Positions 12,859 to 45,586 of a stretch of 64,000 nt of DNA are shown in pieces. Both the position numbers and the translations under genes were made by a program. The stretch lies in contig JAUXNU010000158.1 of assembly GCA_030682655.1 (NCBI GenBank), forward strand, positions 1 through 64,000. The letters run 5' to 3'. The first letter of the stretch is position 1; each line of letters starts with the position of its first letter. The notes beneath the pieces are model-generated. The model did no database searches. It saw only the letters and a program-made list of their open reading frames with translations, and was not told the DNA's origin. This DNA comes from Actinomycetota bacterium (GTDB lineage: Bacteria > Actinomycetota > Coriobacteriia > Anaerosomatales > JAUXNU01).

Positions 12859-14169
12859 GTGTGCGCGCGGAATCGCCATTATCCCGAGACTGGCCAGGAC
12901 ATCGCAGGTCACACTGACCGCGCTGTCCTCGTCGGGGTCGATCGTGCCGAGACCGACTGGCCTGTCGAGGAGTCACTTGCGGAACTTGAGCGGCTCGCGC
13001 ACACCGCAGGCGCCGAGGTAGTTGCCTCGGTCACCCAGCGTCTCGACAAGCCAAACCCCCGTACCTTCATCGGTGCGGGGAAGGCCGAGGAAGTCGCGGC
13101 GATTGCCCACGACACCGACGCCAACCTCGTTGTGCTCGATGACGAACTCTCTCCTCGGCAGCAGGTCAACATCGAGGACCTGCTGCCTGAGACCCGCGTG
13201 ATGGACCGCACGGCTCTCATTCTCGACATCTTCGCCCTCCACGCAACAAGCCGTGAGGGTAAACTTCAGGTCGAGCTCGCGCAGCTGGAATACATGCTTC
13301 CACGGCTCCGGGGCATGTGGGGCCACCTGGACCGCGAACGGCTTGGCGGCGGACGCGGCACGCTATTCGGCGCGGGAGAATCTCAGCTCGAGGTTGACAG
13401 GCGCATGGCGCGCAAACGCATCGCAAGTCTCAAACGCGAGCTCAAGCACGTCAGCGGCGAACGGAAGCTGCAGCGCAAGCGTCGCGCACGCAGCGGTGTG
13501 TTCAGAATCTCGCTTGTGGGCTACACGAACGCGGGCAAGTCCACGCTCCTCAACGCTCTGACAGGCGAGCATGTCCTCGCCGAGGACATGCTCTTTGCGA
13601 CACTGGACTCGACGACACGGCGCCTTGCGCTGCAGGAAGGCCGCGAGCTCACCCTCACCGACACCGTCGGCTTCATCCACAAACTGCCTCACGGGCTCGT
13701 GGAAGCCTTCAAGTCCACTCTCGACGAGGTCGCCGAGGCCGACTTGCTCCTGCATGTCGCCGACGCGTCCACGCCCCAGCGCGAGGCCCAGATGCAGGCG
13801 GTCCGCGAGGTACTCCACGAGATCGATGCACACCGTACGCCCGCGCTTGTGGTCTTCAACAAGATCGACCTGCTCTCTGCCGAGGAATGCTCGCAACTCG
13901 CTCGTCGCTATCCCAATGCCGTCATGCTTTCCGCCGCAACCAGGACCGGCCTAGACGCGTTGCTCGAGCGAATCGCCGACGAAGGCGCGCGCGACAGTGT
14001 GACACTGACGTTGCTCGTGCCCTACACGCGAGGAGACCTCGTCAAGCTCGCTCACGAGCGAACACACTTGGTGTCGGAGAAGCATACGGCCGAGGGCACC
14101 GCACTCGTGATTCGCACCCCGAGATCACTTGCGGGAGCATTCGCGGAGTTCACGATCGAACAGGACTAG
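12859..14169 (+). CDS. hflX: Ribosome-associated GTPase HflX
   Basis: HflX (436 residues) binds the 50S subunit and splits stalled or hibernating ribosomes under stress. The N-terminal HflX domain has NPRTFIGAGKAEEV and the glycine-rich RLGGGRGTLFGAGES. The G domain has G1 GYTNAGKST, G3 DTVGF and G4 NKID. Length is typical. The GTG start is 11 bp after dapL. It is convergent with lexA (76 bp between stops) and no clear terminator is visible there. Confidence 0.95.
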   Translation: MCARNRHYPETGQDIAGHTDRAVLVGVDRAETDWPVEESLAELERLAHTAGAEVVASVTQRLDKPNPRTFIGAGKAEEVAAIAHDTDANLVVLDDELSPRQQVNIEDLLPETRVMDRTALILDIFALHATSREGKLQVELAQLEYMLPRLRGMWGHLDRERLGGGRGTLFGAGESQLEVDRRMARKRIASLKRELKHVSGERKLQRKRRARSGVFRISLVGYTNAGKSTLLNALTGEHVLAEDMLFATLDSTTRRLALQEGRELTLTDTVGFIHKLPHGLVEAFKSTLDEVAEADLLLHVADASTPQREAQMQAVREVLHEIDAHRTPALVVFNKIDLLSAEECSQLARRYPNAVMLSAATRTGLDALLERIADEGARDSVTLTLLVPYTRGDLVKLAHERTHLVSEKHTAEGTALVIRTPRSLAGAFAEFTIEQD

Positions 14170-14245
14170 GCGCTCGTTCGTGGTCTAGGCTACAACGAGT
14201 TGCCGCGACCGGCGAGGGAGCGGCTGGCGTCGAGGTCACCGGCGC

Positions 14246-14869
14246 TCAGACTCGCCTGAACAGCGCGACCACCTTGCCGAGGACCTCCACGTCACGCGCG
14301 TAGATTGGCTCAAGCGCGGGATTCTCCGGCTGCAGCCTGATGCGGTCCGGCTCCCGGAAGAACCGCTTCACCGTGGACTCGTCCTCCAGAAGCGCGACAA
14401 CGATGTCACCGTCGCTCGCGGTGGTCTGCTGGCGCACGACGACGAAGTCCCCGTCCAGTATCCCGGCGCCGACCATGCTGTCACCACGGACGCGCAAGAT
14501 GAAGTTGGCCTCTTCGGCCAGCTCGGGGGGGAGAGTGATCGTCGCTTCGATGTTCTCAGCGGCGAGGATCGGCGAGCCCGCAGCGACCTGCCCAACCAGC
14601 GGAACCGCGTGGAGCTGCCCGTAGTCGATCGCGCGGTCAGTGTCCCGGTAGTCGAGCACCTCGAGCGCGCGCGGTTTCGATGGATCACGACGCAGAAACC
14701 CCTTGGTCTCGAGAGCCGCAAGGTGAGAGTGGACGGTTGACGACGACGAAAGCCCCACAGCCTCGCCAATCTCCCGTACCGAAGGCGGGAAACCACGACG
14801 GTGGATCTCCCCGCGGATGAAATCGAGTATCTGGTGTTGCCTGTTCGTCAGTTCGCGCTTGTAGGCCAT
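14246..14869 (-). CDS. lexA: SOS repressor LexA
   Basis: LexA (207 residues) represses SOS genes and cleaves itself when RecA is activated. Residues 1-70 are the winged helix-turn-helix ([33 protein letters not shown]). The self-cleavage bond is A97-G98 in VGQVAAGSP, with catalytic S131 (RGDSMVGAG) and K168 (STVKRFF). I chose the ATG at 14869 because it gives the family N-terminus MAYKRELT and has GAGGGGG upstream. The frame remains open upstream but runs into the operator region. Autoregulation is expected from the boxes between this gene and the LysM gene. Confidence 0.97.
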
Positions 14870-35962: not shown

Positions 35963-36670
35963 CTACGACAAGTCGTCGAACTTGCGTCCAAGCGCACGAC
36001 GCAGTAGGTGGCTCTTGAGATCGCCGGTGAGACCTTGCAGCTCACCGAGCGTCTCGACGAGCTTCTGGCGGGTTTCCGGCGTCCTGTGCCGAAACGTGGG
36101 CATGAGTATCTGAGAGAACAGCACCGCTTCCCGCTCTGCAAACGTCTCGTACATGCGCAGATGCCGAGGCTCGACACCGAATCGGCGAAGATCCCAGCAT
36201 GCGTGAGCCACATGTACGTCTGTCCGCGAGATCTCTGCACCGTTCTCGCCACGCAAGATCTCCACAAGCCCGAAGTCCGCGAGCTCCTCGATGAACGAAG
36301 ACGGTAGTCCCAAGGAGGACTGTGCGTCCTCGAGCCTCAGCGTCTCGGCATCCTCGAACGGAAGCGCGACCGGCTCGGCCACCGCCCCGCCCTGCGGGCG
36401 GAATTCGGACGGCAGCTTGCCTTTGTCGAAGTCCGCAAGCTTGTCACGGATGACGGCAAGAGGCAGGAAATGGTCCTTCTGTAGTCGCAGTATGAGTTCG
36501 ACGCGCGCGACGTCAGCCTGCGTGAACTTCCTGTATCCACCTGCGGTACGTTCCGGGGACACAAGCCCCTCTTCTTCAAGGAATCGCACTTTGGAGATCG
36601 ACAGGTCGGGATACGCGGGCGAAAGGCGCTCGACGACCTCGCCGATCGTCATGTAGTCGCGACTGGCCAT
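35963..36670 (-). CDS. MerR-family regulator (FtsR/Rv1828-like)
   Basis: A 235-residue MerR-type regulator. The N-terminal winged helix has MTIGEVVERLSPAYPDLSIS, KVRFLEEEGLVSPERT, GYRKFTQADVARVELILRLQ. The C-terminal part (about 110-235) lacks the metal-binding cysteines of MerR/CueR. The order FHA gene then MerR gene matches Mycobacterium garA (Rv1827)-Rv1828; Corynebacterium FtsR, a positive regulator of ftsZ, belongs to this group. ATG 36670 lies 4 bp after the FHA gene. Target genes are unknown here; cell division or glycine metabolism are reasonable guesses. Confidence 0.85.
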   Translation of the reverse strand: MASRDYMTIGEVVERLSPAYPDLSISKVRFLEEEGLVSPERTAGGYRKFTQADVARVELILRLQKDHFLPLAVIRDKLADFDKGKLPSEFRPQGGAVAEPVALPFEDAETLRLEDAQSSLGLPSSFIEELADFGLVEILRGENGAEISRTDVHVAHACWDLRRFGVEPRHLRMYETFAEREAVLFSQILMPTFRHRTPETRQKLVETLGELQGLTGDLKSHLLRRALGRKFDDLS

Positions 36671-36674
36671 GGCG

Positions 36675-37121
36675 CTACTCCCCCGCTCCGCTGAGAAACA
36701 CCATCTGGAAGGTGCCCACCTGCACGGAGTCACCGTTGCGAAGCGGCGCCTTGTCGACACATACGCCGTTCACGTAGGTCCCGTTCAGCGACCCGGCATC
36801 CTCGATCGAGACCTCCGGGCCGGCAGAAGACAACACAGCGTGGTTCCGCGAGACCGTGACATCATTGAGGAAGATATCGCTGGAGGGATCTCGCCCGATG
36901 GACAGACGCGGCCTGTCGATGTAGAACCTCTCGCCGACATCGCGACCCTTTCGCACAACGAGCACCGGTCCGGTGTCGCTCGAAGCACCTGGTGTAGTCG
37001 CACCATCCTCGACACCCACCGGCTCGAACGACTCTGTCGCGCCCTCCAACCGCGCGCCGCAGTCAGCGCAGGTCTCAGCACCCGTTTCGACCGATCCACC
37101 ACAACGCGGGCAAGTGGCCAT
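36675..37121 (-). CDS. Zinc-ribbon FHA-domain protein (GarA/OdhI-like position)
   Basis: A 148-residue protein with a zinc ribbon (CPRC...CADC, residues 4-22), a flexible acidic linker, and an FHA phosphothreonine-binding domain (LSIGRDPSSDIFLNDVTVSR, then NHAVL and AGSLNGTYVNG). GarA of mycobacteria and OdhI of corynebacteria, encoded beside an Rv1828-type MerR gene, are small FHA proteins that switch 2-oxoglutarate metabolism after Ser/Thr kinase action. This protein has a zinc ribbon instead of their ETTS-type phosphosite; a TTP in the linker is a possible site. ATG 37121 is spaced well from GAGGAG; ATG 37127 is also possible. Confidence 0.8.
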   Translation of the reverse strand: MATCPRCGGSVETGAETCADCGARLEGATESFEPVGVEDGATTPGASSDTGPVLVVRKGRDVGERFYIDRPRLSIGRDPSSDIFLNDVTVSRNHAVLSSAGPEVSIEDAGSLNGTYVNGVCVDKAPLRNGDSVQVGTFQMVFLSGAGE

Positions 37122-37157
37122 AGCCATTGCTCCTCACATCTGACGAAAGCACACGCG

Positions 37158-37418
37158 CTACTCGGAGAACCCGAACTCCCGCTTCTGGAACGACGAGGCT
37201 ATCTGCTCCTCCAGAGCCGAGATGATCTCGGGGTTCTCGAGAACCTGGGCCAACTTCTCGTCACTCAAGCGATTCTTCACATACGGATCGCGCAACGCCT
37301 CGCTAAGCCTGCGACCGTTGTGAACCTCCCGTACGACATACTCCACGACGCGCTCTTCAACCGCATCGGTCGCGAGATCGTCCATGAATTCCTGCAGTCT
37401 TTCCGTGATCGATGCCAC
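37158..37418 (-). CDS. Hypothetical small helical protein, 86 aa
   Basis: An 86-residue soluble protein, mainly helical, with no family I can name. It has an amphipathic start (ITERLQEFMDDLATDAVEE), RVVEYVVREVHNGRRLSEAL and a repeated L-x-D/N-P pattern (ALRDPYVKNRL, VLENPEIISALEEQ). GAGGAGGG lies before GTG 37418. It sits between the RsiG-like and FHA genes in a compact operon, so it may belong to the same regulatory pathway. Confidence 0.75.
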   Translation of the reverse strand: MASITERLQEFMDDLATDAVEERVVEYVVREVHNGRRLSEALRDPYVKNRLSDEKLAQVLENPEIISALEEQIASSFQKREFGFSE

Positions 37419-37453: not shown

Positions 37454-37765
37454 CTAGAAGTCATCCTCGTCATCGGGCTCCGCGACATCCACATTCGATA
37501 CTCCGCGAAGATCATTCGCGAGTATGTCTATGAGTCGGTCCACGTCACCAACCGAGATAACGTCCTCCCCTGCCTCGCGCTGCGCCTTGAGACGACGCAC
37601 AAGCTCCGCTCGCAGGATGTCGATCTTGCCATGCAACACCCGGCGTCGATAGGAGATTCGCTGCTCCTCCGCGTATAGCTCGTTCAGGATCTCGCGCAGT
37701 TCATCGTTGGACTTCGAACCGAGGCCGAGAAGCGCATCCTCGATCCGATCATTGCGATCGGACAT
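37454..37765 (-). CDS. rsiG: Single-motif RsiG-like c-di-GMP-binding anti-sigma factor
   Basis: A 103-residue, coiled-coil-rich protein. Residues 34-49 read E34-x3-S38-x2-R41-x3-H45-x3-D49. This matches the c-di-GMP-binding signature of RsiG, E(X)3S(X)2R(X)3Q(X)3D, with His at the Gln position. Streptomyces RsiG has two such motifs in one chain. Basal actinobacteria such as Rubrobacter have a single-motif form that dimerises, holds the sigma factor WhiG when bound to c-di-GMP, and controls type IV pili. ATG 37765 has GGAGGGG upstream. The C-terminus is acidic (EPDDEDDF). The whiG partner is not in the window. Confidence 0.7.
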   Translation of the reverse strand: MSDRNDRIEDALLGLGSKSNDELREILNELYAEEQRISYRRRVLHGKIDILRAELVRRLKAQREAGEDVISVGDVDRLIDILANDLRGVSNVDVAEPDDEDDF

Positions 37766-37810
37766 GACCCCTCCACTCTCACGCAACCGACCATCTTGCT
37801 GACCTGACCG

Positions 37811-43098: not shown

Positions 43099-44319
43099 TC
43101 ACGATACTGCAGGCTCGCCCGCAATGGAGCGCCACGCCCTGACGAGCCCGATCCAGATTCTCTCGAAGAACCCCGGAGCCGGGACGTCGGACGTCGAGAT
43201 GATCGGCACCTGCACGAGAAGCCGCTCCCCCTGCGTGACACTAAGGGTGCCGATCCGCTGGCCAACTGCTACTGGAGCATCGACCGACTCGGGCAGAGCG
43301 ACGGTTCGCCCCACCTCCCCGTCCAGGTCAAAGACCGGAACCACCGCATCGGAGGCGACCACTGCGGCTATCGAGCGGTCGAGGTAGTCGGCGACCGGCA
43401 CGGTGCCGATGCTTTCCTCGGCAGATGCGAGCCGCTTCATCCCGTAGTGATCGAACCCCCAATCGAGCAGCCGCCTAGCATGGCGAAAGCGCGCGGACTC
43501 CGCTTCGATCCCAAGAACGACCGCGATGAGCTCGACGCCATCGCGCTTCGCACTGGCAACGAGACAGTATCCCGCGTCATTGGTCCAGCCGGTCTTGACG
43601 CCGGTCGCATCGGGATAGTCGCCGATGAGCAGGTTGGAATTCTCGAGCTTGTCGCGGCCCTGCGACCCCGTGATCGTGACATCGTCAAGCCCGACGATTC
43701 TTCTGAACTCGGGATTCTCCATCGCCACGCGCGTGACAGTTGCGAGATCAGCGGCTGATGTGCGATGCCCCGGGGCGTCCAGTCCGTGCGGGTTCGCGAA
43801 GCGCGTTGCTGTCAGACCGAGCTCCTCCGCCCGCCTGTTCATCAGCTCGACGAACCCGGGCTCGGTACCCGCGACATGCTCTGCCAGGGCGATGGCTGCG
43901 TCGTTTCCGGATTTCACCAGCATGGCCTCGAGAAGCTCACCGACCGCGTAACGGTCGCCCTCCTTCAGGTCCACGCCTGACTCACCGATGTGCGCGGCGT
44001 ACCCCGAGACCTTGACCGTGCTGTCGAGATCCGCGCGCTCGAGAACGAGCAGGGCGGTCATGATCTTGGTGGTGCTCGCCATCGCGCGGGACTCATCGGC
44101 CTTGCGCGACCACAGCTCCCGTCCGTCCGGAGCAACGAGAACGCCCGCAGCCATCTCGACATCGGGAGCCGCGTCCTTGACGCGCGACGGCGCATTCGAT
44201 ACGCGCGTTCCTCCCACGAAGTCCGAGCCCGGCCGAGAAGCGACGACGACCCCCGGAACGCCAAGAACGGACAGCGCGAAGCACAGCACGACGATCGCAC
44301 GTATGCTGCGGTCTCTCAA
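43099..44319 (-). CDS. dacF: D-alanyl-D-alanine carboxypeptidase (PBP5/DacF type)
   Basis: A 406-residue secreted class C-type penicillin-binding protein that trims the terminal D-Ala of peptidoglycan. Signal peptide at ~1-27; catalytic SxxK in ASTTKIM; SxN in KSGND; KTG in GVKTGWTND. A C-terminal beta domain and an amphipathic helix (FFERIWIGLVRAWRSIAG) probably anchor it to the membrane. The only in-frame start giving the full signal peptide is TTG 44319, so the start is less sure than the rest. Confidence 0.92.
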   Translation of the reverse strand: MRDRSIRAIVVLCFALSVLGVPGVVVASRPGSDFVGGTRVSNAPSRVKDAAPDVEMAAGVLVAPDGRELWSRKADESRAMASTTKIMTALLVLERADLDSTVKVSGYAAHIGESGVDLKEGDRYAVGELLEAMLVKSGNDAAIALAEHVAGTEPGFVELMNRRAEELGLTATRFANPHGLDAPGHRTSAADLATVTRVAMENPEFRRIVGLDDVTITGSQGRDKLENSNLLIGDYPDATGVKTGWTNDAGYCLVASAKRDGVELIAVVLGIEAESARFRHARRLLDWGFDHYGMKRLASAEESIGTVPVADYLDRSIAAVVASDAVVPVFDLDGEVGRTVALPESVDAPVAVGQRIGTLSVTQGERLLVQVPIISTSDVPAPGFFERIWIGLVRAWRSIAGEPAVS

Positions 44320-44359
44320 GTCTGCCTAATCCGTCCCGATACTATGGAATAATGAGGTG

Positions 44360-44404: not shown

Positions 44405-44740
44405 ATGCGGCGGCGGATCAGGCGTGACGAGGGGTTCTCGATGCTCGAGTTGATGGTCGTTGTCGCCATCCTCGGCATACTCGTGATGATCGCAGTTGCT
44501 TCATACCGCATGTCGACCAGCACGGCGCGCCGGGTCACCTGCAAGGAGAACCAGCGCAACCTGACGACGTCCGTCTCACTCTACGAACAAGATCATGACG
44601 GTGCCAGACCGGCCGTCCTTGTCGACCTGACCCCGTACGTCACGAACTACGCCAGCGCGTCCAAGTGCCCCAACGGCGACGGCACGCTACTCGTGTACGA
44701 CCCTGTGGGGAATCGCGTGACATGTCCCAATCATCCATGA
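44405..44740 (+). CDS. Type IV pilin-like protein (prepilin)
   Basis: A 111-residue prepilin: a short basic leader (MRRRIRRDEG) with processing expected after Gly10, then F-S-M-L-E (E5 present) and a hydrophobic helix (MLELMVVVAILGILVMIAVA). The small C-terminal head contains three cysteines (TCKENQRN, SKCPNGDG, TCPNHP). It resembles ComGC/PilA minor pilins. No assembly ATPase, platform or peptidase genes are adjacent, so it is an isolated pilin gene. Ribosome-binding site AGGAGCTGA lies just upstream. Confidence 0.88.
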   Translation: MRRRIRRDEGFSMLELMVVVAILGILVMIAVASYRMSTSTARRVTCKENQRNLTTSVSLYEQDHDGARPAVLVDLTPYVTNYASASKCPNGDGTLLVYDPVGNRVTCPNHP

Positions 44741-44773
44741 TGCTGTCGTGAGCACGATCGGAATGGAGGCTTG

Positions 44774-45586
44774 ATGAAGTACTCGCGCTTCGAGGCGCTC
44801 GTCCTGGTGGTCGGTGTCGGGGCCGTCGCGGGAAGCATCTTGTTCTCGTTCGATGGTGTACCCGTCGCCGAGGAAGTCTTCGCCCAGGTCCTGCTCCTTG
44901 GCGTACTGCTCGGAGCCGTGCACTGGGGCCGGAGCGGCGGCTCGCTCGCGGCACTTGCCGCTGCCGCGCTCTACATCGTGATGCGCCTACCGCTGGTCTT
45001 GAGTGCTCAAGGCCTGTCCCTCGATATCGCAACACTCGTCATCGTACGGATTCTGACCTATGGACTCATCGGCATCGTCGGCGGCGAACTGTGCACCCGC
45101 ATCAAGTACATCTTTGCCCGGTTGGAGAGATCCAGCAGTATCGATGACTGGAGTCAGGTCTACAACCAGCGCTTCATCCTTCGCACACTGACTGCAGCAG
45201 GCGGACAGTATGCACGCTATGACACGCCGTATACGGTGGTACTCATCAAAGTCGCGCCAGCGATCATGGACGGCCTCCGCGTCTCGAAACAGCGCTCGCT
45301 CGTCCGCGGTATCGCCTCCCACATCCGTGGAGACATACGCCTTGTGGACGAGGCTGGCAGGCTTGAGGATGGTACGTTCATCGCGGTGTTGCCTCACACT
45401 CCCAAGGCGGGAGGGGCTGTAGTTGCCGAGAGGCTCCGGGCCGGAGTGATGCGCGTCCTGGGCGCCCGCGAGGAATCCGTTACCGCAACCCTTCTGGGCG
45501 CACCCGAGGACTCGCAGGAGCTCGACGTGCTCAGAGAGAGCCTCGGCTCCGGTGAACCGTCTCAGGCGAGCGCATCCTTCTCGTAG
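44774..45586 (+). CDS. Membrane protein with degenerate GGDEF domain
   Basis: A 270-residue protein: about four N-terminal membrane helices (residues 8-110), then a GGDEF-like fold (IDDWSQVYNQRFILRTLTAA, ARYDTPYTVVLIKV, SHIRGDIRLVDEAGRLEDGT). At the active-site position it reads RLEDGTF instead of GGDEF, so catalysis of c-di-GMP synthesis is unlikely; it may bind nucleotide or act as a scaffold. ATG 44774 has GGAGG 4 bp upstream. The 3' end overlaps the convergent ACT gene by 25 bp. It follows the pilin gene by 33 bp. Confidence 0.75.
   Translation: MKYSRFEALVLVVGVGAVAGSILFSFDGVPVAEEVFAQVLLLGVLLGAVHWGRSGGSLAALAAAALYIVMRLPLVLSAQGLSLDIATLVIVRILTYGLIGIVGGELCTRIKYIFARLERSSSIDDWSQVYNQRFILRTLTAAGGQYARYDTPYTVVLIKVAPAIMDGLRVSKQRSLVRGIASHIRGDIRLVDEAGRLEDGTFIAVLPHTPKAGGAVVAERLRAGVMRVLGAREESVTATLLGAPEDSQELDVLRESLGSGEPSQASASFS

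What the first reader, a model, noticed from the sequence alone, without database searches (positions are those of the whole stretch)
37454..37765. Single-motif RsiG-like anti-sigma factor with Gln-to-His change
Residues 34-49 fit E(X)3S(X)2R(X)3Q(X)3D except His45 for Gln. Single-motif RsiG of basal actinobacteria dimerises around c-di-GMP and holds WhiG, controlling type IV pili in Rubrobacter. Here the gene leads an operon with FHA and MerR regulators. A lone pilin and a degenerate GGDEF protein lie 7 kb away. That suggests a c-di-GMP-sigma switch in a non-filamentous anaerobe, possibly with altered ligand contact.
Basis: partly seen in the sequence, partly recalled or inferred. Interest (0 to 1): 0.65.

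Follow-up and report, generated by a model that had tools for sequence, protein, structure and literature searches.

The report
Single-motif RsiG switch in Anaerosomatales
The gene encodes a normal one-motif RsiG, a protein that uses the messenger c-di-GMP to hold back the sigma factor WhiG; its histidine is a known variant, and comparison with relatives suggests the switch controls type IV pili and a previously undescribed small RNA in a group of subsurface anaerobes.

Summary
The Gln-to-His 'change' is not special: His is in all 62 RsiGs read from the order, and published His-type RsiG (Conexibacter woesei) binds c-di-GMP. The proposed refutation fails: the genome has a WhiG (286 bits) carrying the K-G-R c-di-GMP contacts. 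RsiG and WhiG occur together in 62 of 69 Anaerosomatales genomes and in none of 329 other Coriobacteriia. rsiG-FHA-ftsR is a conserved block in single-motif lineages. WhiG-type promoters are enriched in the order (29 sites vs 1 control) and precede the major type IV pilin, in this genome too (1 mismatch). In the window, one (44316-44342) precedes the conserved pilin-degenerate GGDEF pair. New: the genome's only exact WhiG promoter precedes a structured, unclassified ~120-nt RNA with an invariant C-rich loop, found in 39/69 order-mates; all 29 checkable copies carry a WhiG-type promoter at nearly fixed spacing. Its loop is complementary to the rsiG Shine-Dalgarno region (9 nt), so feedback is possible but unproven. 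Verdict: an ordinary RsiG in a new lineage, with an unexpected RNA output. All binding and regulation is inferred from sequence.

The parts
37454..37765 (-). rsiG, single-motif anti-sigma factor, 103 aa
   Evidence: PF22802 E=1e-18; PDB RsiG hits; AlphaFold2 single-sequence model helix 3-16, helix 20-64, helix 72-88, mean pLDDT 78
37619..37666 (-). c-di-GMP motif E34xxxS38xxR41xxxH45xxxD49
   Evidence: translation; His in 62 of 62 RsiGs read from the order
37768..37776 (-). GTGGAGGGG in the rsiG leader, Shine-Dalgarno region; 9-nt perfect complement of the loop of the WhiG-linked RNA (hypothesis only)
   Evidence: sequence; complement searches
37158..37418 (-). 86-aa protein of unknown family, conserved between rsiG and FHA in the order
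   Evidence: no Pfam hit over cut-off; found in 82 of 114 rsiG loci
36675..37127 (-). zinc-ribbon/FHA protein, OdhI/GarA-like
   Evidence: FHA E=1.3e-18; OdhI model 110 bits, below its cut-off of 200
35963..36670 (-). MerR-type regulator FtsR
   Evidence: NCBIfam FtsR 211 bits, cut-off 150; start chosen from the domain match
44316..44342 (+). WhiG-type promoter TCAAGTCTGCCTAATCCGTCCCGATAC, 62 nt before the pilin start
   Evidence: weight-matrix score 20.0, no equal in 4000 random 160-nt windows; three mismatches to the strict consensus
44405..44740 (+). type IV pilin-like protein
   Evidence: N_methyl 30.6 bits; conserved at this place in 14 of 20 order-mates
44771..45586 (+). membrane protein with degenerate GGDEF domain (LEDGTF)
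   Evidence: GGDEF 22.5 bits; conserved at this place in 18 of 20 order-mates, GGDEF signature lost in all

Best explanation
This is an orthologous single-motif RsiG. [quoted passage not shown] When c-di-GMP falls, WhiG is released and transcribes genes with TAAAG-N-GCCGATAA-like promoters: the major type IV pilin, the pilin/degenerate-GGDEF pair in the window, and a structured small RNA. Shown here: RsiG and WhiG identity, co-occurrence, contact residues, promoter placement and conservation, RNA structure and covariation. Inferred: dimerisation, c-di-GMP binding, WhiG binding, and that WhiG is the sigma factor using these promoters.
For: RsiG identity. WhiG at G000:C74:10799-11473, 286 bits, closest solved relative S. 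venezuelae WhiG 5.7e-97; the K..GR residues that touch c-di-GMP in WhiG (K53, G57, R58 in R. radiotolerans) are present, and the same segment in the FliA chains shown lacks the G-R; kept in 30 of 30 order members read. Over cut-off, RsiG in 65 and WhiG in 66 of 69 order genomes (62 with both) and in 0 of 329 others of the class. Exact WhiG promoters: 29 sites vs 1 control in 69 genomes, 26 of 29 with an unrequested G after TAAA; nine lie just upstream of a major-pilin-like gene, with a prepilin peptidase seen downstream in three. This genome's major pilin has a 1-mismatch site (L133:17188) in a cluster with T2SSE ATPases, PilC-type and prepilin peptidase genes. 13 GGDEF matches over cut-off besides the window's degenerate one.
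Against: No binding, expression or genetic data for any member of this order. whiG is not next to rsiG. Promoter calls are by consensus; the pilin-GGDEF promoter is clear in only 8 of 14 order-mates that have the pilin. The genome is a 221-contig assembly, 97.4% complete, 4.6% contamination.
Confidence: 0.8

Rival explanations
1. His45 alters or abolishes the c-di-GMP contact, so this RsiG responds differently or to another ligand.
For: His replaces the Gln of the R. radiotolerans structure.
Against: His is in all RsiGs read from the order; C. woesei His-type RsiG binds c-di-GMP and not c-di-AMP (PMC8325347); the other four motif residues are intact.
Confidence: 0.05
2. The WhiG-linked RNA pairs with the rsiG leader and lowers RsiG synthesis when WhiG is free, a positive feedback that would sharpen the switch (an addition to the best explanation rather than an alternative).
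For: 9-nt perfect complement over the rsiG Shine-Dalgarno region; complements of 8 or more nt in 26% of 62 rsiG leaders against 1.1% of 543 other leaders.
Against: Most rsiG leaders in the order lack a long complement; complements are no commoner in genomes where the RNA was detected (10 with the RNA, 12 without, at 7 nt or more, counted); GGAGG is the ordinary ribosome-binding core; the leaders come from related genomes and are not independent; other start-codon candidates in the window score as well.
Confidence: 0.2
3. The promoters are read by another sigma factor and RsiG-WhiG controls something else.
For: No direct proof of which sigma factor reads them; a second, weaker match to the sigma model exists (132.7 bits, below cut-off).
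Against: TAAA...GCCGATAA is the published WhiG/flagellar consensus (PMC8325347); only one sigma factor over the FliA_WhiG cut-off was found in this genome; no flagellin.
Confidence: 0.1

Closest known systems
(RsiG)2-(c-di-GMP)2-WhiG switch of Rubrobacter radiotolerans (PMC8325347; PDB 7lq2-7lq4)
   Same: Small single-motif RsiG, same motif, WhiG partner with K-G-R contact residues, WhiG-type promoters before type IV pilin genes and in places before c-di-GMP enzymes
   Different: Different class (Coriobacteriia, Anaerosomatales); His in place of Gln; rsiG sits in a gcv-lplA-rsiG-86aa-FHA-ftsR block; WhiG-type promoters also precede a structured RNA and a pilin/degenerate-GGDEF pair
Conexibacter woesei RsiG (PMC8325347)
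   Same: Single motif with His; shown to bind c-di-GMP, enhanced by WhiG
   Different: Class Thermoleophilia
Twin-motif RsiG of Streptomyces (PDB 6pfj, 6pfv)
   Same: Same family and partner sigma factor
   Different: Two motifs in one chain; controls sporulation; FHA-ftsR not found beside the twin-motif loci examined, whose flanks were 1.5 kb
6C RNA of Actinobacteria (for the WhiG-linked RNA; described from memory)
   Same: Structured RNA with C-rich loops
   Different: No Rfam family, 6C included, matched the RNA at E<=10; here one C-rich loop in the middle hairpin of three

Membership tests
RsiG (PF22802) | Match to the family profile over its cut-off | tested here: met
   67.2 bits vs 27
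RsiG (PF22802) | E(X)3S(X)2R(X)3[Q/H](X)3D motif | tested here: met
   EQRISYRRRVLHGKID
Single-motif RsiG | One motif only, short protein with N- and C-terminal extensions | tested here: met
   One Pfam stretch, 103 aa; three predicted helices
RsiG-WhiG switch | WhiG sigma factor in the genome with c-di-GMP contact residues | tested here: met
   (sigma region 2 contacts; region 4 contacts were not compared residue by residue)
RsiG-WhiG switch | Homodimer, c-di-GMP binding, WhiG binding | not testable with these tools
   needs purified proteins or complex modelling
RsiG-WhiG switch of Rubrobacter type | WhiG-type promoters before type IV pilus genes | tested here: met
FtsR (NF050798) | MerR neighbour over the FtsR cut-off | tested here: met
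   211 bits vs 150
OdhI/GarA | FHA neighbour over the OdhI cut-off | tested here: not met
   110 bits vs 200; FHA domain itself met
6C RNA or any Rfam family (for the WhiG-linked RNA) | Covariance-model match | tested here: not met
   no plausible match at the RNA at E<=10

The most novel reading that the evidence does not exclude
In Anaerosomatales the c-di-GMP-RsiG-WhiG switch drives, besides pili, a new structured RNA with an anti-Shine-Dalgarno C-rich loop that represses rsiG (and perhaps other mRNAs), closing a feedback loop; a WhiG-transcribed degenerate GGDEF protein may in addition compete with RsiG for WhiG, as the GGDEF domain of RmdB does in Streptomyces (PMC13232838).
Probability: 0.15. 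Interest if true: 0.8.

Novelty: new variant of a known kind. Interest (0 to 1): 0.55.

Why it matters
It moves the c-di-GMP-sigma switch into an order of subsurface anaerobes that has cultured members (Anaerosoma, Parvivirga), where pili-like appendages of one strain appear only with ferrihydrite (PMC9686372), and makes the control of those pili testable. It also identifies a non-coding RNA tied to WhiG-type promoters, for which no Rfam family or paper was found in the libraries searched.

Tried and rejected
Altered ligand contact by His45: rejected. Flagellar role for WhiG: no flagellin. Strict-consensus promoter scan of the window alone gave no excess over chance (14 vs 13.6); only the order-wide comparison and the matrix from the RNA promoters were informative. 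First two motif extractions failed through a strand and a pattern error and were redone. RNAalifold on four sequences misplaced the middle hairpin; replaced by an arm-swapping test, 0 of 2000 permutations as good as the real pairs (five arms were cut short by the script and add noise). No sigma-70 promoter match before rsiG.

Full report
Observation. The gene lies on the minus strand, 37765 to 37454, 103 aa. It matches Pfam RsiG at 67.2 bits against a cut-off of 27, and its best solved relatives are RsiG of S. venezuelae and R. radiotolerans.

The histidine. All 62 RsiGs read from the order, this one included, have His at this position (the script required the other motif letters or close substitutes but left this position free). 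The founding paper reports that His is frequent in motif 1 of twin-motif RsiGs, and that the single-motif C. woesei RsiG with His binds c-di-GMP, Kd 25 uM alone and 1.7 uM with WhiG (PMC8325347). The 'change' is therefore ordinary.

Organism and distribution. The order is Anaerosomatales, the former OPB41 (PMC9686372): the 510163-base contig of order-mate G028 is the contig titled 'Anaerosomatales bacterium'. In 398 genomes of the class, RsiG is over cut-off in 65 of 69 order genomes and none of 329 others; FliA_WhiG in 66 of 69 and none of 329; 62 genomes have both. In a sample of the phylum 246 of 396 have RsiG. The published survey found single-motif forms in five Rubrobacteria and Thermoleophilia and does not mention Coriobacteriia in its main text.

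WhiG. One sigma factor in this genome is over the FliA_WhiG cut-off; it is closer to Streptomyces WhiG than to FliA. The c-di-GMP-contacting K, G and R of sigma region 2 are present, while the same segment in the FliA chains shown lacks the G-R; 30 of 30 order members read keep them.

Gene neighbourhood. rsiG is followed by FHA and ftsR genes in 112 of 114 loci from Anaerosomatales, Aquicultor, Subteraquimicrobium and Solirubrobacterales-type contigs. Several genomes were fetched twice, so these are not 114 independent genomes; the two exceptions are one contig end fetched twice. FHA and ftsR were not found within the 1.5 kb flanks of the Streptomyces-like twin-motif loci. ftsR beside odhI/garA is a known conserved actinobacterial pair whose upstream gene varies (PMC6683498); in these lineages rsiG is that upstream gene, with the 86-aa gene between in most Anaerosomatales.

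Promoters. The exact WhiG/flagellar consensus occurs 29 times in the 69 order genomes, and once when read backwards; 26 of the 29 have G after TAAA although the pattern did not ask for it. Nine lie just upstream of a major-pilin-like gene, three of these with a prepilin peptidase in view downstream; one precedes a protein that reads as PAS-GGDEF-EAL and one a histidine kinase (the last two named from sequence, not scanned). In this genome the major pilin, in a cluster with T2SSE ATPases carrying MshEN domains, PilC-type and prepilin peptidase genes, has a site with one mismatch, L133:17188.

The window's pilin and GGDEF gene. The pair is conserved beside dacF-gcv in the order: GGDEF in 18 of 20, pilin in 14 of 20. 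The GGDEF signature is lost in all. A WhiG-type site at 44316-44342 scores 20.0, above 4000 random windows, and 8 of the 14 order-mates with the pilin have a site at p<0.02. In Streptomyces a GGDEF domain (RmdB) binds WhiG and keeps RsiG off it (PMC13232838), so such a role here is worth testing.

The RNA. The genome's single exact WhiG-type site, G000:C112:33103-33130, is followed by no plausible gene but by three hairpins. A covariance model built from four such RNAs, without the promoter, finds 39 of 69 order genomes and two borderline hits among 329 others. All 29 copies with upstream sequence have a WhiG-type promoter with at most 3 mismatches in 13, 5-7 nt before the model start, against about 1% of random windows; 24 of these copies were not used in the model. 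Folding z-scores are -3.9 to -5.1. Outer helices covary (11 of 17 pairs with changes on both sides, 0 of 500 shuffles as high, on an alignment fitted to the model), and middle-hairpin arms fit their own partners. The loop GG[CU]G[CU]CCCUCC is present in all 30 copies. The RNA lies after a V-type ATPase subunit D-like gene (named from sequence) in 23 of 30 loci. Nothing in Rfam matches.

Possible feedback. The loop is complementary over 9 nt to the rsiG leader in this genome. Such complements are enriched in rsiG leaders (related genomes, not independent) but do not follow the detected presence of the RNA, and other start-codon candidates score as well. This stays a hypothesis.

Standing. Identity of RsiG and WhiG, their co-occurrence, and the promoter and RNA conservation are shown. 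Binding, dimerisation and regulation are inferred.

Noticed in passing
L276:1501-1620 (G000:C112:33136-33255): Structured RNA with invariant C-rich loop behind a WhiG-type promoter, in 39 of 69 order genomes, no Rfam match
   Followed up: yes
L252, L258, L259: Exact WhiG-type promoters before predicted secreted proteins that share a stretch HE[IV]WHIIDWRDNG
   Followed up: no
L133:7000-8676 and 13088-14758 (G000:C127): Two T2SSE (PilB-type) ATPases with MshEN domains, a known c-di-GMP-binding domain: a second possible c-di-GMP input to the pili
   Followed up: partly
window 44771-45586: Membrane protein with degenerate GGDEF domain, conserved in 18 of 20 order-mates, in most next to a pilin gene
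   Followed up: partly
window 37158-37418: 86-aa protein of no known family between rsiG and FHA, conserved through most of the order and in some related lineages
   Followed up: partly
L250: Exact WhiG-type site 195 nt before a multiheme cytochrome-like protein
   Followed up: no
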